From a virus: 23,889 nt of DNA. The notes beneath the pieces were generated by a model, which saw only the letters and a list, made by a program, of their open reading frames with translations, searched no databases and was not told the origin of the DNA. Positions 2,821 to 23,889 of this stretch are shown piece after piece. The stretch is from IMG/VR virus record IMGVR_UViG_3300045941_000141, positions 1 to 23,889 of that record, one strand, 5' to 3'. Every line of letters begins with the position of its first letter. Within the stretch, counting starts at the first letter, position 1. The position numbers and the translations under genes were made by a program.

Positions 2821-3241
2821 CAACGGACCGCCTTGGAAGCTCTCGAGGGAGTCGAAGGAGAACCTGAAGGGGGTGCATGAGCATCTCGTCCAGGTAATCG
2901 AGCGGGCCATCGAGATCAGTCCGCTGGACTTCAAGGTACTCGAGGGCACTCGCTCGATGAAACGACAGGAGCTGTTGCTGTCCGCTGGGGCATCGACCAC
3001 CCTCAATTCCCGGCACTTGACAGGTCATGCGGTGGACCTGGCAGTGCTCCTGGGAGGAGAGGTCAGATGGGACTGGCCCCTCTATCGAATCTTGTGGGCC
3101 TCGGGGGTGTATCCAGCGGCGCAGGAAATCGGGGTGCTGGTCGAGTGGGGAGGGAACTGGGAAAGCTTCCCAGACGGCGGGCATTTCCAGCTCCCGTGGA
3201 TCGCCTACCCGCCAGTGAAGGAGGAGCCGCGGAATGCGTGA
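2813..3241 (+). CDS. Endolysin, M15-family D,D- or L,D-type peptidase (142 aa)
   Basis: The product probably cuts peptide cross-links or stems of peptidoglycan at lysis. Zinc-site motifs of the M15 (VanY / T5 endolysin-like) family are complete: S-R-H-L-T-G-H-A-V-D (His68, Asp75) and D-G-G-H (Asp121, His124). The spacing of seven between the first His and Asp and three between the catalytic Asp and last His is the same as I recall for T5 endolysin. 'GTRSMKRQ' (residues 45-52) matches the substrate-side segment usual in the family. The frame stays open back to 2777, but ATG 2813 has the better ribosome site (GAGGGAGG upstream) and gives the usual compact single-domain length. No signal peptide is present, so it needs a holin. 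The end overlaps the methyltransferase start by eight bases. Confidence 0.9.
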   Translation: MPSNGPPWKLSRESKENLKGVHEHLVQVIERAIEISPLDFKVLEGTRSMKRQELLLSAGASTTLNSRHLTGHAVDLAVLLGGEVRWDWPLYRILWASGVYPAAQEIGVLVEWGGNWESFPDGGHFQLPWIAYPPVKEEPRNA

Positions 3242-3875
3242 GCAGTTGGTAATGGCAGGGCAGTTCTGGTGTCCCGAGCCTGATCGGCAGATGGTTGAGA
3301 AGCTCGGTAATCGGGACGATGTCACCATTAAGGAGGCGATGAACTACGTCACTCACAGGGAAACAGCGGTGGATGTGGGAGCCTACATCGGCGATTGGAC
3401 CCGACCGCTGTGCTTCCTGTTCGACCAGGTGTACGCGTTCGAGCCGGATCCGATCCTGGTCCATTGCCTGTATCGTAACCTGGAGATGCACACAAACGTG
3501 GCCGTGTTTCCGGCGGCTCTGGGGGAGGAGACTCGACGAGCCGGCTTTACCCATCTATCAGGAGGTCGGTCGCACATCGGGGGAGCGAACGGGATCGCCC
3601 TTATTATCCCGCTCGATGCACTATATCTGGAGAGCGCTGGACTGCTGAAGTTCGACTGCGAAGGGTACGAGTTGTTTGCCGTGCGTGGCGCGATCGACAC
3701 TATTCGGACCTTCAAGCCGGTCGTGATCTTGGAGGAGAACGACTGTGCTAGGCGGTACGGACTAAATCCGGCGCAGGCGCGGAAGCTGTTGGAGAGTGAA
3801 GGAATGGAGGTGGTGTTTCGGTATGAGTATCTTCCTGAGAACTGGGATGTGGTGATGGCATGGCCGAAGACATAG
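3234..3875 (+). CDS. FkbM-family SAM-dependent methyltransferase (213 aa)
   Basis: The Rossmann-type SAM fold is clear. Motif I is A-V-D-V-G-A-Y-I-G (residues 45-53), the acidic end of strand 2 is Y-A-F-E-P-D-P (67-73), and the FkbM signature L-K-F-D-C-E-G-Y-E lies at 138-146, followed by 'VRGA'. FkbM enzymes usually O-methylate sugars or polyketide-type hydroxyls, using S-adenosylmethionine in the cytoplasm. Phages often carry them as accessory genes. The gene overlaps the endolysin upstream and the next gene downstream, so it is part of the late transcription unit rather than an isolated insertion. The substrate is unknown; together with the glycosyltransferase at 6175 it may modify a virion or host glycan. 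Confidence 0.9.
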   Translation: MREQLVMAGQFWCPEPDRQMVEKLGNRDDVTIKEAMNYVTHRETAVDVGAYIGDWTRPLCFLFDQVYAFEPDPILVHCLYRNLEMHTNVAVFPAALGEETRRAGFTHLSGGRSHIGGANGIALIIPLDALYLESAGLLKFDCEGYELFAVRGAIDTIRTFKPVVILEENDCARRYGLNPAQARKLLESEGMEVVFRYEYLPENWDVVMAWPKT

Positions 3876-10113: not shown

Positions 10114-10557
10114 ATGCCTATCTCTGCAAATGATCGGTCGAAGATCCTGCGGAACAGCAGGGAGCCTGTCGATCGGATGCCCTACACTAACCCGTTCACG
10201 ACGGGGAATGCTCTGCTGGATAGCTCCCTCGCAGATGTCCAGAACGCCTTCGTCTTCGGACGGCGGGTGGGAGCCTTGCTCAGCGATATTGCGACCGAGA
10301 TCGCCGAGGCGGGAGCAGCGAAGATTACGGCTGGACAGGAGTTGGTACCAGGGAAGGAAGTGGACCAGTTCCTTTGGGCCAGAGATTATCAGGCAGGTGA
10401 CTCAGAGCTGGCGATGAAGAAGATCATCGACCACTTTGGAGAGACGGTGGCAGATGCTGCTGCCATGTATGCCAGGACTGATGTTGAGATCCGCGCCGCA
10501 TTGGTCGAGTTCGTTGTGCCTGCGCTTGCTGCTGCGGTAGCCAATAAGCGTCGCTGA
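10114..10557 (+). CDS. Hypothetical protein in the fibre cluster (147 aa)
   Basis: The frame stays open upstream to 10006, inside the fibre gene, but ATG 10114 has AGGGGAGA eight bases upstream and lies after the fibre stop, so it is the likely start. The product is mostly helical (for example ALLDSSLADVQNAFVFGRRVG, LLSDIATEIAEAGAAKI, EIRAALVEFVVPALAAAVAN). I do not recognise a family. It is not beta-rich like its neighbours, so it may be a fibre chaperone, an adaptor or a minor structural protein. The stop overlaps the next start (TGATG). Confidence 0.7.
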   Translation: MPISANDRSKILRNSREPVDRMPYTNPFTTGNALLDSSLADVQNAFVFGRRVGALLSDIATEIAEAGAAKITAGQELVPGKEVDQFLWARDYQAGDSELAMKKIIDHFGETVADAAAMYARTDVEIRAALVEFVVPALAAAVANKRR

Positions 10558-11294
10558 TGTTCTACTACGGCGCAAATACCATCGCACCAGCGTCCGCATT
10601 CGAGGCGCGGTTTGCCGACCATGACGGCACGAATGATTGGACTGCTCGTGGTGCGGATCTGAGCGGCTCTGCTGACGGTAACGATTGGGCGTTCTCAGTA
10701 TGGTTCAAGGCTGCTACGCTTGGAGCGAACCGTACCATATTTACAAACAGTCTAACAAGCTTTGCGTTCACATGGGATAATACCGATCTCCGAATGGAGC
10801 TGATTATTGAAGATACTGCTGGTACGCAGAGAGTACGCATGTATTGCCTGGACAGCATGGCGACTGGTGTTCCGCATCATTTCTGTGCCTTCGGTGATGG
10901 CACGCTCAGGAATGCTTACATTGATGATGTCGCAGCGACGGTAAATCTGTACGGAAGTAATACGCTTGACTTCACGACCCCCAACTGGAGTATCGGCGCG
11001 CAGCCGACAGGTGCTGTGAAATGGGTCGGCGGGATCGGTGAGCTATGGTTCGGGGTTGGCTCGGCGTTTGCTCTCGACTTCGACACGACGAGCAATCGAA
11101 GAAAGTTCATCACCGCAGGTGGATTGCCAGTGGACCTCGGCGAGAATGGTGAGATCCCGACGGGATCCTCGCCGCTCTCGTACCACAGCTTCCGTACCGG
11201 TGGCTCACCGAACGACTTCGCAACGGAGAGAGGAACCTCAGGCACCTGGACCCTAAATGGTGCTCTAGCTGATGGGGGAGCTATATCGCTATGA
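10557..11294 (+). CDS. LamG / concanavalin-like tail protein (245 aa)
   Basis: The product looks like one LamG-type jelly-roll: 'FEARFADHDGTNDWTARGAD' at the first strand, 'DWAFSVWFKA' (about residues 42-51, the usual 'fSvWfk' strand), 'RTIFTN', 'HHFCAFGDGTLRNAYIDD', and 'GGIGELWF', the end strand common to LamG domains. Such domains bind carbohydrate or act as structural caps in phage tails. Alternatively it could be a capsid decoration protein, but its place between fibre and spike genes favours the tail. The start is a TGATG overlap and the end an ATGA overlap with the spike gene, so translation is probably coupled. Confidence 0.78.
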   Translation: MFYYGANTIAPASAFEARFADHDGTNDWTARGADLSGSADGNDWAFSVWFKAATLGANRTIFTNSLTSFAFTWDNTDLRMELIIEDTAGTQRVRMYCLDSMATGVPHHFCAFGDGTLRNAYIDDVAATVNLYGSNTLDFTTPNWSIGAQPTGAVKWVGGIGELWFGVGSAFALDFDTTSNRRKFITAGGLPVDLGENGEIPTGSSPLSYHSFRTGGSPNDFATERGTSGTWTLNGALADGGAISL

Positions 11295-13645
11295 GCTTTT
11301 ATGCAATGTCCGCAGCGACCAATGGTGGTGGAGCCTCCGCGATCGGCACTACACCGCGGGTCATACCGAATACCGGATATTCAGAGATTGTGAACACGTT
11401 GCCTGGTGGAGCGCCGCTAGCGTACTGGCGGTGTGGTGAGCTGGGCGGATCGGTGCTGACCGATACCAGACCAGGTGCTCGGCATTTCTCTCTTGCAGGG
11501 CTGCCGCTCTACGACACGCCAGGTCTACCAGCGGACAGCGATACAGCTGTTGACATGCGGGGCATTGCGATTGCATCGAGAGCCAGTGATACAGGGCTAC
11601 AGCTGGCTGCATTCTCCCTGAGCTTCTGGTTCAGAGCGCACACAATGCCAGCGCTGATTGATCCGAACGAGTCCCAGATCATTATCGGGAAGGACGCCAG
11701 CGGACTACATGACGGCGACTTTACGGTGTTCACGGAGGAGACTGGCGTAGTTAAGGCTCAGTTCCAATCGAATACGGCGTCCTTTGCGTTGAGCTCGCCA
11801 GTAGTGGCGGAGGAAATCTACCACGTCTGCGTCCGAGCTGACAACACCGGCTTCGATATGTACGTGAATGGGAAGTATGTCGGGAAGAATACTGCATATA
11901 CGACAGCTTGGATCAACAATGTCAATCCCCTTACCATTGGAGTAGCGCCCTGGGCCATTGTCAACTACAACGGAATTGTAGACGAGATTGCGCTCTTCCC
12001 AAGGATTCTCACGGAAGCTGAGGTCTTCTTGCTGGCTCAGCATGTCGAGCTGCCGGAGGCCGTAGGTGACAGCTTCACGGTGCAGGAGGGTACCACAACC
12101 GTCCTGAATGTAGTGGCGAATGATACCTTCGCCGGACCGAAGTCAGGACTGACAGTGACAGTGGTTACATCTCCAGGTGGAGGAGACACCGCAACACCCG
12201 ATGCGAATAAGGATATTGTGTACGTTGCAGGAGCTGTGGGAGCAACGACGGCGAGGAGCTTCGCCTATAAGATAACCGATCCGAACGGAGAGAGTAACAT
12301 AGCCACGGTGAACATGACGATACAGGATGTCGCTGCACCGCCAACCGGAGCCGAGAACTGCTACAATGAGAGCGCGGCAGATGTGGTGGAGATCGGGACA
12401 GGGAGTGGAGATATTGGAGTAGCACTGGCAGCAGCTATTCTTAATGCACCGGCAGGCAGGAACATTTTGATCCTTCCGGGGACGTATACTGGTGGAGTTC
12501 AGACATTCCGAGCCTCAGGTACAGCGGCGGCGAAGGTGATCGTGAGGCCGAAGCCTGACCCGCTTGTGGGAGATATCGGAATTGTCACTGTCAACAACGC
12601 CAACTGGACTTTGGCAGATGGAGTTGGCTCGGAAGGAGTGTGTAAGCATCTGGTAATCTCCAAGATCTATTTCAACCAGAGCCGGGTGGTGCTGGCAGGA
12701 GACAACAATCGCGTGGCGAGGTGCCGGTTCCGCACAATCTCTGGCACTGCACTTCAGGTGGGCGATAATAACGGCAGGCATTTCCGGAATTGTCGGATCA
12801 GTAACTGCGATTTCAGTGAGTTCACCAATGGGCTTAGTCAACATAACCCGATCAATGTTCGGAACCTCTTCGGTCAAGGCAACGCAAGGAATCTTCTAAT
12901 CGATCGTTGCTACTTTCATGACGTGAACGTAGAGGGGATCAATGGAACAGAGATTATCGGTACGTATGCAAATGTCCCTGGATTGCAGAACCCGGTGAGA
13001 GGAGAGACTGTTACGATAACTCACTGTTTGTTCTCCGACTGGATATTGAGGAAGCCAGCGAGTGCGGGCGGCGAAGGCGAGCTTATCACCATCAAGAGTG
13101 CCGGATGGGTGGTGAAGTTCTGCACTTTCCTAAATACGAACCTCGAGGTTACATTCAGGACTACACGAGATACGGAGCTGCGAAGCTGTTGGTTCGAGGG
13201 CGGAGACAACATTCGGGTAATGGGAGATGATAATCTGGTGATCGGGAATAAGGTGGTCGGCCCGGACATCATGTACATTAGGGCTGGAAACGCTACAACG
13301 CAGGAAGCGATAGCGTTGTCAGAACCTGATGGGATCGGCGTGTACGCTCGGTGTGCAAGGAATCTCGTGGTGGGAAACGTGATGGATACGGGAAGGATCG
13401 AGGTTGGCTTCTATCCCGATGCCGGTATCAGGCAGTCCGCCATTGATAATGTGCTCGAAGCGAATTCGAGGCTGGCAGGTGAGCCGCACTACATTCTGCA
13501 TACCACGCAGTTTGGTTTCACGCCGGCGCAAGAGAGGACTACAATCCGCACAACCACCTCACATCCGTATGAGGCACCGGTGAAGCTGCTGCCTAGCCAG
13601 GTCGGCCTCATGGTTCCTGATCAATACTGTCCGACGGGGACCTAA
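11291..13645 (+). CDS. Tailspike with LamG, Ig-like and PL6 lyase-like beta-helix domains (784 aa)
   Basis: Three regions follow in order. Residues about 35-250 are a LamG domain (APLAYWRCGE, FSLSFWFRA, YVNGKYVGKN, GIVDEIALFPRILTEAEV). Residues about 251-345 are a bacterial Ig/cadherin-like domain (FTVQEGTTTVLNVVANDT and SFAYKITDPNGESN). Residues about 355-740 are a right-handed beta-helix starting 'AAAILNAPAGRNILILPGTY', like polysaccharide lyase family 6 (alginate lyase / chondroitinase B). The PL6 site is present: Glu595, Glu597 and Lys602 in 'GEGELITIKS', and Arg623 in 'TFRTT'. The spacings (E-K 7 and 5, K-R 21) equal those I recall for chondroitinase B Glu243, Glu245, Lys250 and Arg271. 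It probably degrades an acidic surface polysaccharide at adsorption. The Asn calcium ligand is not certain. The fold call is from pattern only. Confidence 0.82.
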   Translation: MSFYAMSAATNGGGASAIGTTPRVIPNTGYSEIVNTLPGGAPLAYWRCGELGGSVLTDTRPGARHFSLAGLPLYDTPGLPADSDTAVDMRGIAIASRASDTGLQLAAFSLSFWFRAHTMPALIDPNESQIIIGKDASGLHDGDFTVFTEETGVVKAQFQSNTASFALSSPVVAEEIYHVCVRADNTGFDMYVNGKYVGKNTAYTTAWINNVNPLTIGVAPWAIVNYNGIVDEIALFPRILTEAEVFLLAQHVELPEAVGDSFTVQEGTTTVLNVVANDTFAGPKSGLTVTVVTSPGGGDTATPDANKDIVYVAGAVGATTARSFAYKITDPNGESNIATVNMTIQDVAAPPTGAENCYNESAADVVEIGTGSGDIGVALAAAILNAPAGRNILILPGTYTGGVQTFRASGTAAAKVIVRPKPDPLVGDIGIVTVNNANWTLADGVGSEGVCKHLVISKIYFNQSRVVLAGDNNRVARCRFRTISGTALQVGDNNGRHFRNCRISNCDFSEFTNGLSQHNPINVRNLFGQGNARNLLIDRCYFHDVNVEGINGTEIIGTYANVPGLQNPVRGETVTITHCLFSDWILRKPASAGGEGELITIKSAGWVVKFCTFLNTNLEVTFRTTRDTELRSCWFEGGDNIRVMGDDNLVIGNKVVGPDIMYIRAGNATTQEAIALSEPDGIGVYARCARNLVVGNVMDTGRIEVGFYPDAGIRQSAIDNVLEANSRLAGEPHYILHTTQFGFTPAQERTTIRTTTSHPYEAPVKLLPSQVGLMVPDQYCPTGT

Positions 13646-16981: not shown

Positions 16982-17869
16982 ATGTCCGGTGGCGGTGGCG
17001 GTGGAGATGCGACAACGACCACAGAGCCGTGGGAGCAACAGAAGCCTTACCTCACGTACCTGTTTAACCAGGCGAAGGATCTGTATAAGCAGGGAATGCC
17101 CGAGGCATATCCTGGAGAGTATGTTGCAGGGTTCACGCCAGCGGAGAAAGCAGGACAGAGGCTGGCTAAGAGGACGGCAAGAGGAGGAATGACAGATGTT
17201 GCCAGGAGTGCTGCGAGAGCACAGCAGTTTCTGACCAATCCGGACCTTCTCAGCCCAGAGAGCAACAAATACCTGAGAGCCTCAGCGGCTGGTGCTGTTA
17301 GGCCCCTTTATGAGCAGCTGACTGAGACGGCGCTTCCCGCGATCAGAGGGGAGGCTGTTACTTCTGGTGCCTATGGAAGCAATCGTCAGGGTATTGCGGA
17401 GGGTCTGGCTGCGGGGAGAACGTCTCGAGCAGCTGGCGACATCACTGCACAGATGTACGAGAGAGCGTATGCCGAAGGCCTCGATGCGTTGGCGAAGGGT
17501 ACGGCGCTGACTCCAACGGTGCAGGCGGCGCAGCTGGCTCCGGCCCAGACCCTCGCTGGGGTGGGTGCGCAACGGCGCTCGTATGAACAGGCACTTATTG
17601 ACTCGGCAATTCAACAGTATAACTACAATCAGGCACTTCCGTATCTGAACCTCGCTCAGTATCAGAACTTCATTCAGGGAGGATATGGAGGGCAGACCAC
17701 TTCGCAGTCGTCGATGCCGGGAGCAAATCCGTTCCTCGCTGGTCTTGGGGGAGCTCTTTCCGGGGCAGCCTCTGGCGCAATGCTAGGCTCCTTCGGTGGG
17801 CCGCCCGGCATGGCAATAGGTGCTGGTGCTGGTGCCCTCGCGGGAACACTACCTGTACTCTTAGGTTAG
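16982..17869 (+). CDS. Putative internal virion / DNA ejection protein (295 aa)
   Basis: The protein begins MSGGGGGGDATTTTEPWEQQ, continues with 'PYLTYLFNQAKDLYKQGMPE' and 'YVAGFTPAEKAGQRLAKR', and is helical and Ala-rich in the middle. The C-terminal 45 residues are Gly/Ala-rich and hydrophobic with GxxxG-type spacing (GLGGALSGAASGAMLGSFGG, GMAIGAGAGALAGTLPVLLG), which suits membrane insertion. This Gly-Thr start and Gly-rich hydrophobic end is a recurring pattern in proteins coded between tail nozzle and giant internal proteins of podoviruses. It probably travels in the head and enters the host envelope with DNA. Exact family is not known to me. Confidence 0.7.
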   Translation: MSGGGGGGDATTTTEPWEQQKPYLTYLFNQAKDLYKQGMPEAYPGEYVAGFTPAEKAGQRLAKRTARGGMTDVARSAARAQQFLTNPDLLSPESNKYLRASAAGAVRPLYEQLTETALPAIRGEAVTSGAYGSNRQGIAEGLAAGRTSRAAGDITAQMYERAYAEGLDALAKGTALTPTVQAAQLAPAQTLAGVGAQRRSYEQALIDSAIQQYNYNQALPYLNLAQYQNFIQGGYGGQTTSQSSMPGANPFLAGLGGALSGAASGAMLGSFGGPPGMAIGAGAGALAGTLPVLLG

Positions 17870-18163: not shown

Positions 18164-19399
18164 ATGGCTATTGCGCCTCCTCCGTTGCCTTCGCCGAAGC
18201 CGAACGTTCCGATTACTCCTGCAACGGTGGCGCCGACTACTGCTCCGATGACGATGCAGGAGGCGCAACATCAGGAACGAGTCTCGGGCTGGCAGAAGTT
18301 CTTCACAGATGTGGGAAAGGACCCTAATGCTCTAGGCTTCCTCGTCGCAATGGGTTCTACCTTGACACGTCCGACGAACCTCGAGCCAGTAGCGCAGGTC
18401 AATCAGGCCCTTGTAAATGGCATGGCCATGATGGGGCTGATGTCGCAGTCAGCGAGGGAAAGGGCCAGACAGGCGAATGAGGAGCAGCTGGCTACGCGCC
18501 GGGTCGCCGTAGCGGAGCGTGGTGCAACAGCTGAAGAGCGCCGCACGATGACGGGGGAGGAGGCGCTAGAGGTTGAGCGGAGAAGAGCAGACATTGCTGC
18601 GCAGCAGGCTCGAACTGAGGCGGCGCTGGGAAGTGCGCGGCTTGGGTTGCAGGGGAAGGAGATGAGTCTGGCCGAGCAGCGTCTTGCGTTGCAGGGGCGG
18701 GAGCTTGATATCTCCGAGCGCCGCCTTGGGACGGAGATGGATCTAGAGGAGAAACGGCTCGAGCTGGCTGGTCAGACACATCTCCTTGCGAAGCAGAAGC
18801 TTGGCCATGATATGCAGCTGCTCGAAGCACAGCTTGCGGCTGCTTCCACAGAGGCTCAGACAGCGGCGCAAAAGCAGAGGCTGGAAGAGGCAAAAGCAGT
18901 CTTTGCTACGGTGAATAAGGAGACGAAGACAGCAATGGAGCTGGCTGAGACGCCGGAAGATGCGGAGATTATTCTACAGGATGCTTTGCAAAAGGTGACA
19001 ACGTACTTCAGAGGAGCTGGCGTAAATGTTCCTGCTTATACTCCGCCAGAACCAGAGCTGACGGAGGAGGAGATCTTCCAGCAAATCACTGCGATGAACC
19101 CGGATGCGCCAGAAGAGGTGAGGAGGCGAGCTGCACAATCCAGGGCAGGAACACTTCCGCCGGAGCCGACCACGGCAGTTGCCGGGACCACGCCTCCACC
19201 GCCCGGTCCGTATAAGTTCATCGAGGAGGTAGCTGCAGAGCCGACTGCTTCGCCAGAGGAGATTGCTGAGGCGATTGCGCAAGCTGAGCAATTGCGAGAT
19301 GCTTCGGCAGCGGTAGATCCCGAGCTGATGTATCTCCTCGCTCGGCTGCATATGCGGCAAATGGGCGCAGCAGCGAACGTTCCGATGGGTCCGAGGTAG
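18164..19399 (+). CDS. Coiled-coil internal virion protein (411 aa)
   Basis: After a Pro/Thr-rich N-terminus (about residues 1-30) comes 'SGWQKFFTDVGKDPNALGFL', then from about 85 to 245 a long charged coiled coil rich in Glu, Arg, Gln and Leu (for example ARQANEEQLATRRVAVAERG, AEQRLALQGRELDISERRLG, EEKRLELAGQTHLLAKQKLG). The last third alternates Pro-rich linkers (PPEPTTAVAGTTPPPPGP) with short helices. Long helical proteins in this position usually are ejected internal proteins that build or stretch the trans-envelope channel. No catalytic motif is seen. The stop lies two bases before the next ATG. Confidence 0.72.
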   Translation: MAIAPPPLPSPKPNVPITPATVAPTTAPMTMQEAQHQERVSGWQKFFTDVGKDPNALGFLVAMGSTLTRPTNLEPVAQVNQALVNGMAMMGLMSQSARERARQANEEQLATRRVAVAERGATAEERRTMTGEEALEVERRRADIAAQQARTEAALGSARLGLQGKEMSLAEQRLALQGRELDISERRLGTEMDLEEKRLELAGQTHLLAKQKLGHDMQLLEAQLAAASTEAQTAAQKQRLEEAKAVFATVNKETKTAMELAETPEDAEIILQDALQKVTTYFRGAGVNVPAYTPPEPELTEEEIFQQITAMNPDAPEEVRRRAAQSRAGTLPPEPTTAVAGTTPPPPGPYKFIEEVAAEPTASPEEIAEAIAQAEQLRDASAAVDPELMYLLARLHMRQMGAAANVPMGPR

Positions 19400-19401
19400 C
19401 G

Positions 19402-22400
19402 ATGCTGATAGATCCCGAAACGGGACTTAAGGTTCCATCACTACCGGCGACAGTTGACCCAGTGACGGGGCTGAAGATCCCCGCGCTGAGGGAGCCGAAC
19501 TGGCGCCAGCTGGGTCCAGCTGCGAAGTCAACAGCGGAAGAGCCAGGGATCCTCTCCATCCTGGGTCGGGGCGTGGCGAGAGGGGCGTTGCAGACCGGGG
19601 CCCTCCTGACCGAGGCGACAGGGTTCGAGGATACGTCAGAGAAGCTGGATCGAGCGGCAGCGGAGTGGAAGCGGCAGGTTGGGAGCTTCAGCGAGGTCGA
19701 AAGTGTTGGAGACTTCGCCACGTGGGCGGCGGAGGAGATTGCCACGAATGCGCCGAACATCGGGTTGATCATTGCGGGAGCAGTTGGTGGTGGTGCGCTG
19801 GCTGGACCAGTGGGGGCGATTGTTGGAGCATTTGCTCCAGACTTGCTGTTGCAGAAGGGCGAGACAGAGAAGGCGATTAAGCAGGAGGGACTCGAGCCAA
19901 CCTGGACCAATACCCTTCCTGGTGCCTTCACGAAAGCTGCCCTCGATGTCCTGCCGCTGATGTCAATTGCGAGGAGGCTCGGTATAGCTCCTGCCCTCAT
20001 CAACCGAGCAGCTGTCAATGCGGGGGTCAAGTCGGGGCTGCTGGCGAAAGCTGCCATTACGGGGAAATACATTCTAGCGGAGGCAGGACTCGAAGCTGCT
20101 CAACAATACATTGACCAGTTTACGGTTAATATCTTGAAGGAGGGAAAGCTCCGCTTTAAGCCGAACAGTGCTGAGTGGAAGGAGCTGATGAATGCAGCGG
20201 CAGCTGGTGGCGTTGCAATAGCTCCCTTCGGCCTTGCTGCCGCTATAAAGGATGTTGAGCCGGAGACGATGGCTCCGCCCGAGGAAGAGTTCGAGCGGCC
20301 AGTTCCCCTTCCCCCCGAGGGAGAGCCGCCAACGGAACCTGGTCCACCTCCTGTTGAGGCGCTGCCTCCCGAGCCTCCAGAAGGTAGACCAGGCCCAGCG
20401 CCAGCACCGCCGACAGAGCCAACACCAGCTCCTCCAGCTCCGACACCTCCTGCTGAGCCAGTGCCTCCACCGGAGAAGCGCACGAGAGTACCTGGGCTGC
20501 CTGGTTTTACCTCCGTACGACAACCAGGCGAAGTGAATACCAACTCCTTGTTTGAGGGAGATGAACTTGTAGGCACCTTCAAGCTGTGGAACGGCAGGTG
20601 GAACGTCGAATATAGGAACCAAAGCTTTGAAGCTCCAGAAGAGATGACGCTGGCCGAGGCCATCACGCAGACGCAGAAATTCTATGAGGCTTATTATAAG
20701 AAGACTGAGACAACGCCAACTCCGCCTCCGACAGAGCCTCCTGCTGGACCTGTTCCTAAGCCGAAGGGACCTAAGCCGAAGCCTGCACCGACCCCGGCTC
20801 CAGAGCCGCCGCCAGAAATTACAGAACTGCCACCACCTCCTCGAATAAAGGCTTTGTCTCCAGAGGCTGAAAGCAGTGTCTTCGAGGAGTCACATCTGGA
20901 AGCAATGGAGACTGGAGGACGAACCACTTCAATTGCAGATTGGCTCGCAACGAAAGCGGCTCGAGGAGATGCTATACCAGAAGAGCTTGCCGACTTCGAC
21001 AAGGTTGGCAGGGCGGGATACAAGGCTAGTAGTACACCTCGCTTTATTCCTCGAGGTAAGGCCTTCTTACTCCCTGGTGGGCCGAAAGGTCTCGTGAAGG
21101 TTACGACAGACTATAACGTGGTAAAGAAGCTCGATCCAGCAGAGCCTCTAGTCCTGGACATTAAACCCGGAGCCAAATCAGTTTATGGCATTCCGTATAG
21201 GATGACAGCGAAAGGCTCTACTCCATCGGTGTACTACTTCAGGGAAGGTGATGTTAAGTTCCGAGCCGGTGACACTGGCATTGCAGAAACGGCAAAGAGG
21301 GAGATCATCCGCAGGACCAAGATTGCGAAAGGTTTATCGCGGTTCTCGACGAAGCGAGATATGCCTCCGGGTACGCAACGAATATCAAATATCGCACGAG
21401 TGTACGTTGCGCCTGCTACTCGAGAGCTCAATCAAGCAGATCTGGAGGCAATCGACAAGATTTTCCCTGGCAAGTCACAGCTCTACGTTAGTCCGACTGC
21501 GATTGCCACACCGCAACGAGTGAAGAATATCACGAAGCTTTTGAACCAATGGATTGAGAAATACCTTGGTGACGGGAAGTTACACCTCAATATCAACGAG
21601 GCACCGCTGGGCCATGCAGATTGGAGAGGAGGCGCAGACGTTGTTGGTGCTGGTGTCTATGAAATAGAGATTCGCTCAGATCTCGCAGTTGGTGATCTAT
21701 CGCAGCTATATCAAACCTTGGCTCACGAGTTTGGTCACGTGCTGGAGTATCATTATTATCATAGAGCACCTATGGAAGTTAAGGAGTCTATTGACTCAGC
21801 TTATGTCGAATGGCTACAACATTACCTTCCAATGTCGCAGCAAGAATTTGCTCAAGAGTATGGAGGATTTGGAGATCCTCGGCTAGCTACCTTAAACACA
21901 CGTACTGTGATAGATTCGTTAAATAGTAATAATCGTCTTGAGAAGGAGTTCTTCGAGTATGCTCTAAGCTTTCCGGAGTGGTTCGCACAGCAGACCTCCA
22001 TCTATCTACAGCGTACAGCGGAGTTCCATGATAGCAAGTTGAAGGAATTTTTCGAGGGACTGGTGGAGCTGCTGAAGAATTTCTACAATCATATCAAGCC
22101 GCATCTGCGCCCAGCTGTTGCGTTTGAGAACTGGATGGGGGTTGTAACAGCGACATCGCAGATTGAGCGAGAGCTCGGATATATTCCTGGCGGTGGGATG
22201 CAAGAATCATACAGGGGGTACTACAGTGGCACCTCGGCGCAGTCAGCTTTTGGACAGATCGAGAAAGTGATTGATGGGGCAATTGGTTTACCGATGCGGC
22301 CCTCGGTGGACAAGTTCGGGAAGTTCTCCGAGTATGTTCTGACACTCCTTCAGATTGGTCAGAAGTTCCCGCATCTGGCTCCGGTGCAAAAGTATATCTC

Positions 22401-23889
22401 CCTCATTCAAGAGCAGTGGACAGATAAGATCCGAGTGACGTCTCTTGCTGACGAGACCCGCGGGGCGTGGAATAAGCTGGGGAAGAACCAGGGCGAGCGA
22501 CTAGCAAAATTCCTCTATGATGTTACCCTCGATAGTCTTGACAAGCACCGGAGGTTAACCACAGCCGAGCTCGATACATGGCGCAGCAAGCATGGCTTGA
22601 GCGACTCCGCCATGCGCGTGTATACGCAAATGGACCTGAACTTTCAGGACATCTTACAGGAGATCGAGCAACATCTGAGGGCCCAAGCAGCAAAGGTCTT
22701 CGCAGCGGATAAGTTCCAGCTGGATATCGCGATGGAGAAGCTGGATAAGGAGTTTCAGCTGCTTCGGGATAGGAACTACTTCCCCTTGACGAGGTTCGGC
22801 CAATATTCGGTAACGTTGAAGGCGCCACGGGATCTTATGTGGGAGGGGAAAAAGTTCAAAGCTGGCGATGTGATGTCCTTCGAGACGTATGAGATGAAGA
22901 GGGAGGCTCAGAGTAGAGCGAACTCATTAAGGAAGCTGCCGAACGTTGATGTGGAAGAGAGTTATATTCCTGATACTCCCTTCACCTTCTCGGGCTTTCC
23001 GCCTGCAATGCTTGAGTCTATGAAGATGGAGCTTGGGCTAGATGCTCAGCAGCTAAAACAGTTCAGAGATATCGTTTATAGGTTGTCTCCGGGTCAGAGC
23101 TTCAAGAAGCACCTTCTCCGAAGGAGAGGTGTAGCTGGGTTCTCCGCAGATGCGAAGCGGGCATACGCTAGCTACATGATGCATGCTGCGTCACACATCT
23201 CTAGAATGAAATTCTATCAGCCGTTGCAAGAACAGATCGGTATCTTGGCAGCAGGTCGCGGTTCGAATACCGTGGCGCGGCAACGCTTGGTTGAGTACTT
23301 ACGTAATCATTACTCCTATATGGTCAATCCGGGGAACGAGTGGGCAGCAGTTAGGTCAGCGTTATTCACCTACTATCTCGGCTTCTCTATCAAGTCTGCG
23401 CTGGTTAATCTCACCCAGATCCCGATGGTAGGATATCCTTATTTGGCGTCGAGGTATGGTGATGTCCAGGCTGTTGCTGAACTGACTAAGGCTATAAAGG
23501 ATGTTTTTACCTTTAGACCACTGTCGCCGGTTGAGGAGGCCCTTATCCAGCAAGGACAATCGTACCTGAATGAGAGCCTAGCCTCCGAGCTAGCGGCAGT
23601 GGCTGAGGGCTCGAACCTCGATCGGATGTTGGGGGGAACGGATAAAGCTAGATATGTCCGAGCTTTCCAGCGCGGCTCAGCCTTCCTCTTCAAACATGCC
23701 GAGATGATTAATAGGAGGATCACGTTCCTGGCGGCTGTCCGTCTAGCTGCCGCAACTGGGGTCCTGGATGTAGAGGCAGCAGGGCGAGCAGCTGTCCAGA
23801 CCTCGATGTTCGAATATCAGAAGTGGAACCGTCCACAAATAGCACGAGGGAAGAAGTCGGTATTCTTTGTATTCCAGCAGTATATGCAG
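19402..23889 (+). CDS. Giant internal virion (polyvalent) protein with zinc-peptidase and PLxRFG modules, 3'-truncated
   Basis: ATG 19402 opens a frame with no stop for 1496 codons to the window end. Order of regions: about 110-150, a Gly/Ala-rich hydrophobic segment (NIGLIIAGAVGGGALAGPVG) that may enter the membrane; about 285-365 and 435-485, Pro/Glu-rich linkers; about 535-660, an unrecognised beta-rich region; about 740-870, a zincin with 'TLAHEFGHVLEYHY' (His775, Glu776, His779) and a possible third zinc ligand Glu859 in 'EWFAQ'; about 1040-1490, a helical module with 'NYFPLTRFGQYSV' (Pro1128-Gly1133, the PLxRFG motif), 'RGVAGFSADAKRAYASY', and 'FTYYLGFSIKSALVNLTQIP'. The last parts match the large polyvalent virion proteins that phages inject with DNA. 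The peptidase may act on wall peptides or host proteins on entry. Gene size and end are unknown. Confidence 0.85.
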   Translation, partial: MLIDPETGLKVPSLPATVDPVTGLKIPALREPNWRQLGPAAKSTAEEPGILSILGRGVARGALQTGALLTEATGFEDTSEKLDRAAAEWKRQVGSFSEVESVGDFATWAAEEIATNAPNIGLIIAGAVGGGALAGPVGAIVGAFAPDLLLQKGETEKAIKQEGLEPTWTNTLPGAFTKAALDVLPLMSIARRLGIAPALINRAAVNAGVKSGLLAKAAITGKYILAEAGLEAAQQYIDQFTVNILKEGKLRFKPNSAEWKELMNAAAAGGVAIAPFGLAAAIKDVEPETMAPPEEEFERPVPLPPEGEPPTEPGPPPVEALPPEPPEGRPGPAPAPPTEPTPAPPAPTPPAEPVPPPEKRTRVPGLPGFTSVRQPGEVNTNSLFEGDELVGTFKLWNGRWNVEYRNQSFEAPEEMTLAEAITQTQKFYEAYYKKTETTPTPPPTEPPAGPVPKPKGPKPKPAPTPAPEPPPEITELPPPPRIKALSPEAESSVFEESHLEAMETGGRTTSIADWLATKAARGDAIPEELADFDKVGRAGYKASSTPRFIPRGKAFLLPGGPKGLVKVTTDYNVVKKLDPAEPLVLDIKPGAKSVYGIPYRMTAKGSTPSVYYFREGDVKFRAGDTGIAETAKREIIRRTKIAKGLSRFSTKRDMPPGTQRISNIARVYVAPATRELNQADLEAIDKIFPGKSQLYVSPTAIATPQRVKNITKLLNQWIEKYLGDGKLHLNINEAPLGHADWRGGADVVGAGVYEIEIRSDLAVGDLSQLYQTLAHEFGHVLEYHYYHRAPMEVKESIDSAYVEWLQHYLPMSQQEFAQEYGGFGDPRLATLNTRTVIDSLNSNNRLEKEFFEYALSFPEWFAQQTSIYLQRTAEFHDSKLKEFFEGLVELLKNFYNHIKPHLRPAVAFENWMGVVTATSQIERELGYIPGGGMQESYRGYYSGTSAQSAFGQIEKVIDGAIGLPMRPSVDKFGKFSEYVLTLLQIGQKFPHLAPVQKYISLIQEQWTDKIRVTSLADETRGAWNKLGKNQGERLAKFLYDVTLDSLDKHRRLTTAELDTWRSKHGLSDSAMRVYTQMDLNFQDILQEIEQHLRAQAAKVFAADKFQLDIAMEKLDKEFQLLRDRNYFPLTRFGQYSVTLKAPRDLMWEGKKFKAGDVMSFETYEMKREAQSRANSLRKLPNVDVEESYIPDTPFTFSGFPPAMLESMKMELGLDAQQLKQFRDIVYRLSPGQSFKKHLLRRRGVAGFSADAKRAYASYMMHAASHISRMKFYQPLQEQIGILAAGRGSNTVARQRLVEYLRNHYSYMVNPGNEWAAVRSALFTYYLGFSIKSALVNLTQIPMVGYPYLASRYGDVQAVAELTKAIKDVFTFRPLSPVEEALIQQGQSYLNESLASELAAVAEGSNLDRMLGGTDKARYVRAFQRGSAFLFKHAEMINRRITFLAAVRLAAATGVLDVEAAGRAAVQTSMFEYQKWNRPQIARGKKSVFFVFQQYMQ
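20260..20490 (+). repeat. Pro/Glu/Ala-coding low-complexity linker inside the giant gene
   Basis: The sequence is a run of CCx, GAG and GCx codons coding for PPEG/PEPP/APAPP/PTPAPP-type protein. A second, shorter run lies at about 20710-20850. These are protein linkers rather than DNA elements, but such short degenerate repeats are sites of length change between related phages and of assembly error. Confidence 0.6.

What the first reader, a model, noticed from the sequence alone, without database searches (positions are those of the whole stretch)
19402..23889. Giant injected protein combines a zinc peptidase and a PLxRFG polyvalent module
A single frame of at least 1496 codons holds a hydrophobic segment, Pro-rich linkers, a complete HExxH site with a downstream Glu, and the PLTRFG helical module. 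Polyvalent phage proteins are known to carry several effector domains that enter the host with DNA. A zincin in this setting could open the wall or cut a host defence or stress protein at the first moment of infection. Because the frame leaves the window, automatic callers may drop it.
Basis: partly seen in the sequence, partly recalled or inferred. Interest (0 to 1): 0.75.

Follow-up and report, generated by a model that had tools for sequence, protein, structure and literature searches.

The report
Phage polyvalent protein with zinc peptidase
A tailed phage carries an 1,818-residue protein, probably packed in the virion and ejected into the host, in which a probable zinc peptidase sits just before a widespread C-terminal module; this is an ordinary design among phage 'polyvalent' proteins, and here it was found to be nearly universal for that module.

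Summary
The frame 19402-23889 (+) encodes HEFGH (775-779), a downstream Glu (E859) and PLTRFG (1128-1133). A longer contig of the same phage (one mismatch, at its very end) completes it: 1,818 aa with a stop. Across 25 zincin homologues at 18-25% identity, H775, E776, G778, H779, Y853, E859 and A862 are invariant. A model (mean pLDDT 83) shows a minimal zincin fold, and its best structural neighbours are phage polyvalent proteins. The C-terminus matches NCBIfam PLxRFG (NF032893, 322 bits against a cut-off of 100). It is not new in kind: zincin-like peptidases are already described as the commonest domain of polyvalent proteins (Iyer 2017, PMC5512222). I add a census chosen on the module alone: 40 of 46 non-redundant PLxRFG proteins carry HExxH or HExxxH 300-600 residues upstream of the motif (0.84 expected), 45 of 46 within 900, none downstream. 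The window's spacing is 353. The peptidase is best read as a partner of the PLxRFG module, most likely processing its own giant protein, rather than a free host-targeting or wall-opening effector. Cleavage, targets and ejection are inferred, not shown. No methylase or helicase was found, so 'DarB-like' or 'DNA methylase' labels would be wrong.

The parts
19402..23889 (+). Giant polyvalent gene, first 1,496 of 1,818 codons; the stop lies beyond the window (L002:4634)
19402..20271 (+). N-terminal region (aa 1-290) like a virion structural protein, with a hydrophobic Gly/Ala-rich stretch (around aa 111-161)
   Evidence: phrog_6958 'virion structural protein', aa 46-279, E 7.2e-8; hydropathy; shared with Vibrio phage VS-ABTNL-3 by alignment
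20299..20481 (+). Pro-rich linker 1 (aa 300-360, 49% Pro)
20704..20856 (+). Pro-rich linker 2 (aa 435-485, 43% Pro)
20857..21468 (+). Orphan region (about aa 486-689), no relative found; possible payload domain
   Evidence: no match in phage records, IMG/VR (own contig only) or PDB sequences (best E 1.5)
21469..22116 (+). Zincin-like metallopeptidase domain (aa 690-905)
   Evidence: alignments A1 and A3; model pLDDT 82.7, pTM 0.72; BFVD neighbours prob 1.00
21724..21738 (+). HEFGH (aa 775-779), predicted zinc ligands H775 and H779 and catalytic base E776
   Evidence: H, E, G, H invariant in 25 homologues
21958..21960 (+). Invariant Y853, possible transition-state Tyr
   Evidence: invariant column; role inferred
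21976..21978 (+). E859, predicted third zinc ligand, in the SFxEWFA-type motif
   Evidence: invariant column; helix 190-205 of the model
22234..22773 (+). Helical segment before the motif (aa 945-1124), in the place taken by LPD39 in other PLxRFG proteins
   Evidence: model; LPD39 (PF18858) lies directly before PLxRFG in L060, L078 and L085; the window itself has no Pfam hit there
22774..23889 (+). PLxRFG module (aa 1125-1496 in the window; to about aa 1800 in the full protein)
   Evidence: NF032893: 216 bits in the window, 322 bits complete (positions 2-674 of 681), cut-off 100
22783..22800 (+). PLTRFG motif (aa 1128-1133)
   Evidence: Y, F, P, R, F, G of the motif invariant in 37 sequences
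16982..17869 (+). DNA-ejection-like protein upstream, supporting an ejection-cluster context
   Evidence: phrog_4287 'DNA ejection protein' E 1.1e-23; homologous to VS-ABTNL-3 PVS_22, annotated 'putative DNA injection protein' (E 3e-20), and to a Mel-JY34 gene (E 5e-47) in the same order
18164..19399 (+). 411-aa gene ending directly before the giant gene; a gene of similar size lies there in both named relatives
   Evidence: gene order; no confident family; weak match to Mel-JY34 (E 0.009)

Best explanation
The gene encodes a large internal (ejection-type) virion protein of a tailed phage. Its parts, in order, are: an N-terminal structural segment with a hydrophobic stretch, Pro-rich linkers, an orphan domain, a zincin-fold zinc metallopeptidase, and the LPD39-like/PLxRFG C-terminal module. 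H775 and H779 with E859 most likely bind zinc, and E776 activates water. The peptidase is a standing partner of the PLxRFG module. Its most likely job is to cut the giant protein itself, in the head or during or after ejection, so that payload and module can separate. Shown by sequence: the complete frame, the motif and its conservation, the module and the conserved spacing. Inferred: catalysis, packaging and ejection, self-cleavage. My estimates: active zincin 0.85, ejected with the DNA 0.75, self-processing as the main role 0.45.
For: Seven invariant residues, including H775, E776, H779 and E859, at 18-25% identity. Model with an N-terminal helix, three strands, a HExxH helix (pLDDT about 92) and a Glu helix (about 93). 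BFVD best hits E 8.6e-7 and 3.6e-6, prob 1.00, the second a 'Large polyvalent protein associated domain' protein. PLxRFG NF032893 at 322 bits. Census: HExxH or HExxxH 300-600 residues before PLxRFG in 40 of 46 non-redundant proteins (0.84 expected), 0 of 46 downstream; 8 of 11 named phages have it 370-600 residues upstream and 10 of 11 within about 715. The two bacterial-contig relatives of this zincin clade also carry the module; in one (L110) it lies between methylase/helicase-like sequence and PLxRFG. Ejection-type neighbour with conserved gene order. Iyer 2017 proposes autoprocessing for polyvalent zincins and cites cleavage of P1 DdrB.
Against: No cleavage site or product is known. A few PLxRFG proteins (L066, L083, L098) show no HExxH/HExxxH at the usual place, so the peptidase is not obligatory. 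Iyer 2017 notes that N4 virion RNA polymerase is packaged unprocessed although it holds such a domain. Zinc geometry was not measured.
Confidence: 0.5

Rival explanations
1. The zincin is an injected effector that cleaves a host protein (a defence or stress factor) early in infection.
For: Polyvalent zincins have been proposed as possible effectors (PMC5512222); the fold is weakly nearest to the M34/ATLF (lethal-factor) group among solved structures (E 1.7e-3 at best, TM below 0.3).
Against: A freely shuffled effector would not be expected to keep one place, whereas this motif keeps its place before the PLxRFG module in most proteins. No target is known.
Confidence: 0.27
2. The zincin helps to open the cell envelope during ejection by cutting wall peptides or an envelope protein.
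For: No wall hydrolase was recognised in the neighbouring structural genes examined; the ejection-type context suits envelope work.
Against: No match to known wall peptidase families. The same module-zincin pair occurs beside methylase/helicase-like payloads that would act in the cytoplasm.
Confidence: 0.12
3. The domain is a structural zincin-like fold without a real proteolytic role in infection.
For: A few module proteins lack it altogether.
Against: Complete retention of H, E, H and Glu across 25 sequences at about 20% identity, including members found through the module and not through the motif.
Confidence: 0.1

Closest known systems
Zincin-like MPTase domains of polyvalent proteins (Iyer, Burroughs and Aravind 2017, PMC5512222)
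   Same: HEXXH helix, downstream Glu in a later helix, three-stranded core, inside a multidomain phage protein
   Different: Lacks the Asp three residues after HEXXH reported for one widespread phage clade (here E782); which of the 12 published clades it belongs to could not be tested
PLxRFG domain proteins (NCBIfam NF032893, 'tail-700'), e.g. Klebsiella phages SopranoGao and LASTA
   Same: Module above cut-off; HExxH at a similar distance upstream (SopranoGao 399, window 353)
   Different: Different N-terminal part; the window protein has no recognised methylase or helicase
Microcystis phage Mel-JY34 XAI96480.1 and Vibrio phage VS-ABTNL-3 PVS_24
   Same: Same place in the genome, same zincin and same module; 22-25% identity in the zincin, 29-36% in the module
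   Different: Annotated 'hypothetical protein' and 'putative DNA methylase'; the orphan region 486-689 is not recognisably shared
Phage P1 DarB and DdrB
   Same: Large head proteins of a phage; DdrB has a predicted C-terminal zincin and is processed (PMC5512222)
   Different: DarB-defining methylase and helicase not found here
M34/ATLF zincin fold (lethal-factor group)
   Same: HExxH motif and later zinc Glu; best Foldseek neighbour among solved structures
   Different: E 1.7e-3 at best and TM below 0.3: fold-level resemblance only, no family match

Membership tests
Polyvalent-protein zincin-like MPTase (Iyer 2017) | HEXXH motif on a helix | tested here: met
   HEFGH 775-779, helix 99-117 of the model
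Polyvalent-protein zincin-like MPTase (Iyer 2017) | Glu on a later helix as third zinc ligand | tested here: met
   E859 invariant, helix 190-205; zinc distance not measured
Polyvalent-protein zincin-like MPTase (Iyer 2017) | Core of three strands with a preceding helix | tested here: met
   H37-55, E59-65, E76-82, E85-91
Polyvalent-protein zincin-like MPTase (Iyer 2017) | Asp three residues after HEXXH (one widespread phage clade) | tested here: not met
   E782 there, and the column varies among relatives; excludes that clade only, not the superfamily
Polyvalent-protein zincin-like MPTase (Iyer 2017) | Placement in one of the 12 published clades | not testable with these tools
   The clade alignments are on an FTP site that is not held
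Polyvalent-protein zincin-like MPTase (Iyer 2017) | Proteolytic activity and zinc binding | not testable with these tools
   Needs experiment
PLxRFG domain (NF032893) | Score above the curated cut-off over the whole model | tested here: met
   321.9 bits against 100, positions 2-674 of 681
DarB-like antirestriction protein | Adenine methylase and SF2 helicase domains | tested here: not met
   No such Pfam hit; the PHROG 'DarB-like' match covers only the C-terminal module
Ejected internal virion protein | Present in virions and delivered with the DNA | not testable with these tools
   Indirect support only: phrog_6958 match and ejection-type neighbour
ImmA/IrrE (M78) peptidase | PF06114 above its cut-off | tested here: not met
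   No hit for the window domain; 8 of 25 relatives match weakly, best E 0.002
M34/ATLF peptidase | Significant profile or fold match | tested here: inconclusive
   No Pfam hit; Foldseek E 1.7e-3, TM below 0.3

The most novel reading that the evidence does not exclude
The zincin and the PLxRFG module form one fixed, self-processing delivery unit used across very different tailed phages: different zincin types (HExxH and HExxxH) keep the same place before the module while the N-terminal payload is exchanged, so the peptidase would be a general release device for ejected phage cargo.
Probability: 0.35. Interest if true: 0.6.

Novelty: new member of a known kind. Interest (0 to 1): 0.33.

Why it matters
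PLxRFG proteins are common, very large, and described as uncharacterised in the papers found. Showing that nearly all carry a zincin motif at a set distance before the module gives them a testable biochemical activity and a simple hypothesis, self-processing for cargo release. It also warns against naming them methylases or antirestriction proteins on the strength of the C-terminus alone.

Tried and rejected
(1) Wall peptidase or ImmA/IrrE identity: no supporting profile match. (2) DarB-like antirestriction: the match is the C-terminal module only. (3) Identity of region 486-689: no relatives in phage records, IMG/VR or PDB sequences; a Colicin D match at E 1.5 was disregarded. (4) Fold of the PLxRFG module: confident model (pLDDT 84.9, pTM 0.84) but no PDB match better than E 0.84. 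(5) Profile search of the PDB with the zincin alignment: only generic HExxH matches, best E 0.002. (6) F116 has payload and module in two genes, which looked like evidence against self-release, but relatives PA8 and phiC725A have one long gene there, so a sequencing frameshift or local break is likelier.

Full report
Observation. The frame from ATG 19402 to the end of the window is open for 1,496 codons. It holds one HExxH (HEFGH, 775-779), E859, one PLTRFG (1128-1133), a hydrophobic stretch near residue 123 and two linkers of 49% and 43% Pro. The window is a whole IMG/VR record. A second record, IMGVR_UViG_3300045952_000323 (46,649 bp), carries the same phage: 10,799 bases identical, and over the 3,663 shared bases of the gene's 3' part a single difference 19 bases from the contig end. 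That contig is broken inside this gene, between residues 266 and 276, and it supplies the missing end: 1,818 residues and a stop.

Setting. The window encodes a portal/head-tail adaptor-like protein, a major head protein, tail proteins, a DNA-ejection-like protein (16982-17869, phrog_4287, E 1.1e-23), a 411-aa protein and then the giant gene. The other contig adds DNA primase/helicase, DNA polymerase, a ParB-methyltransferase fusion, a Sak4-like protein and large terminase. In Microcystis phage Mel-JY34 and Vibrio phage VS-ABTNL-3 the homologue of the ejection-like gene, a gene of 350-400 codons and the giant gene lie in the same order. This supports, but does not show, that the giant protein is packaged and ejected.

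The peptidase domain. Pfam finds no significant family in the window protein. Alignment with Mel-JY34 and VS-ABTNL-3 keeps HExxH and E859 at 22-25% identity. A search of IMG/VR with that alignment gave 25 further loci, and the module search gave more; in 25 aligned sequences H775, E776, G778, H779, Y853, E859 and A862 are invariant. Loci were found partly through the pattern AHE[FM]G, so their HExxH is not independent evidence; those found through the module (L043, L045, L046, L048, L050, L052, L056, L090, L092, L108) are free of that particular bias, although they were kept because they matched the zincin profile. AlphaFold2 on this alignment gives mean pLDDT 82.7 and pTM 0.72, with the helix, three strands, HExxH helix and later Glu helix of a minimal zincin. 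Foldseek against viral models gives E 8.6e-7 and 3.6e-6 with prob 1.00, the second being a 'Large polyvalent protein associated domain-containing protein'. Among solved structures only a weak resemblance to the lethal-factor (M34/ATLF) group appears (E 1.7e-3, TM below 0.3), in keeping with the published HHpred link of another polyvalent zincin. An active-site Tyr shortly before the zinc Glu is known in M34 enzymes (own knowledge); Y853 could be its counterpart, but this is a lead only.

The module. NCBIfam NF032893 (PLxRFG) matches the complete protein over positions 2-674 of 681 with 321.9 bits against a cut-off of 100. In other members Pfam LPD39 lies directly before the motif. The module is modelled with confidence (pLDDT 84.9) but resembles no solved structure.

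The census. From 73 IMG/VR loci found with the module alignment, I took the proteins with at least 600 residues before PLxRFG. Of 46 non-redundant ones, 29 have HExxH 300-600 residues upstream (0.49 expected from shuffles) and 40 have HExxH or HExxxH there (0.84 expected); 45 have one within 900 residues; none has one in the 600 residues downstream (0.89 expected). HExxxH is a published variant of polyvalent zincins. I did not model each of these motifs as a zincin, so 'zincin' is inferred for clades other than the window's. In 11 named phages, 8 have such a motif 370-600 residues upstream and 10 within about 715. L083 and L098, relatives of L082 which has the motif, show none, so loss occurs. 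The two hits of the window's zincin clade in bacterial genome contigs (Endozoicomonas and Legionella MAGs) also carry the module; the first has methylase/helicase-like sequence N-terminal of the zincin, judged by reading the translation and not by a profile.

Mechanism. Iyer and colleagues proposed that polyvalent zincins process their own polypeptides, citing P1 DdrB, and noted effectors as an alternative. A fixed seat beside a constant module, with exchangeable N-terminal parts, fits a device that acts on the protein itself better than a freely shuffled effector. This is inference; no cleavage is shown, and N4 virion RNA polymerase is a published counter-example to pre-packaging cleavage.

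Known or new. The domain type, the module and their occurrence in giant phage proteins are known. [quoted passage not shown] I found no statement of the near-universal zincin-PLxRFG pairing, but the library is partial and the supplementary tables of Iyer 2017 could not be read. I file the finding as a new member of a known kind, with a modest general result attached.

Noticed in passing
L011:3429-8801 (VS-ABTNL-3 PVS_24); phrog_10089: PLxRFG proteins are labelled 'DNA methylase' or 'DarB-like antirestriction' through the C-terminal module alone; the window protein shows no methylase or helicase.
   Followed up: partly
window 20857-21468 (aa 486-689): Orphan region between the second Pro-rich linker and the zincin, with no relatives in any collection searched; possible payload domain.
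   Followed up: partly
window 3234-3875: FkbM-type methyltransferase (PF05050, E 7e-11) encoded between the portal-like and major head genes.
   Followed up: no
window 11291-13645: Probable tail spike with Laminin_G_3, Big_9 and beta-helix matches; a second Laminin_G_3 protein lies at 10557-11294.
   Followed up: no
L002:8739-10028 (-): ParB-like domain fused to a DNA methyltransferase in the replication module of the same phage.
   Followed up: no
L110:3-10325: Endozoicomonas MAG contig with a protein of at least 3,441 residues joining methylase/helicase-like sequence, this zincin clade and PLxRFG; probably phage-derived.
   Followed up: partly
L123 (Pseudomonas phage F116, CDS 59 and 60): The polyvalent gene is split in F116 but single in relatives PA8 and phiC725A, suggesting a sequencing frameshift or a local break.
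   Followed up: partly
IMGVR_UViG_3300045952_000323 ends: The longer contig starts and ends inside the giant gene (aa 266-276), as expected for a circularly permuted or circular assembly of about 46.7 kb.
   Followed up: partly
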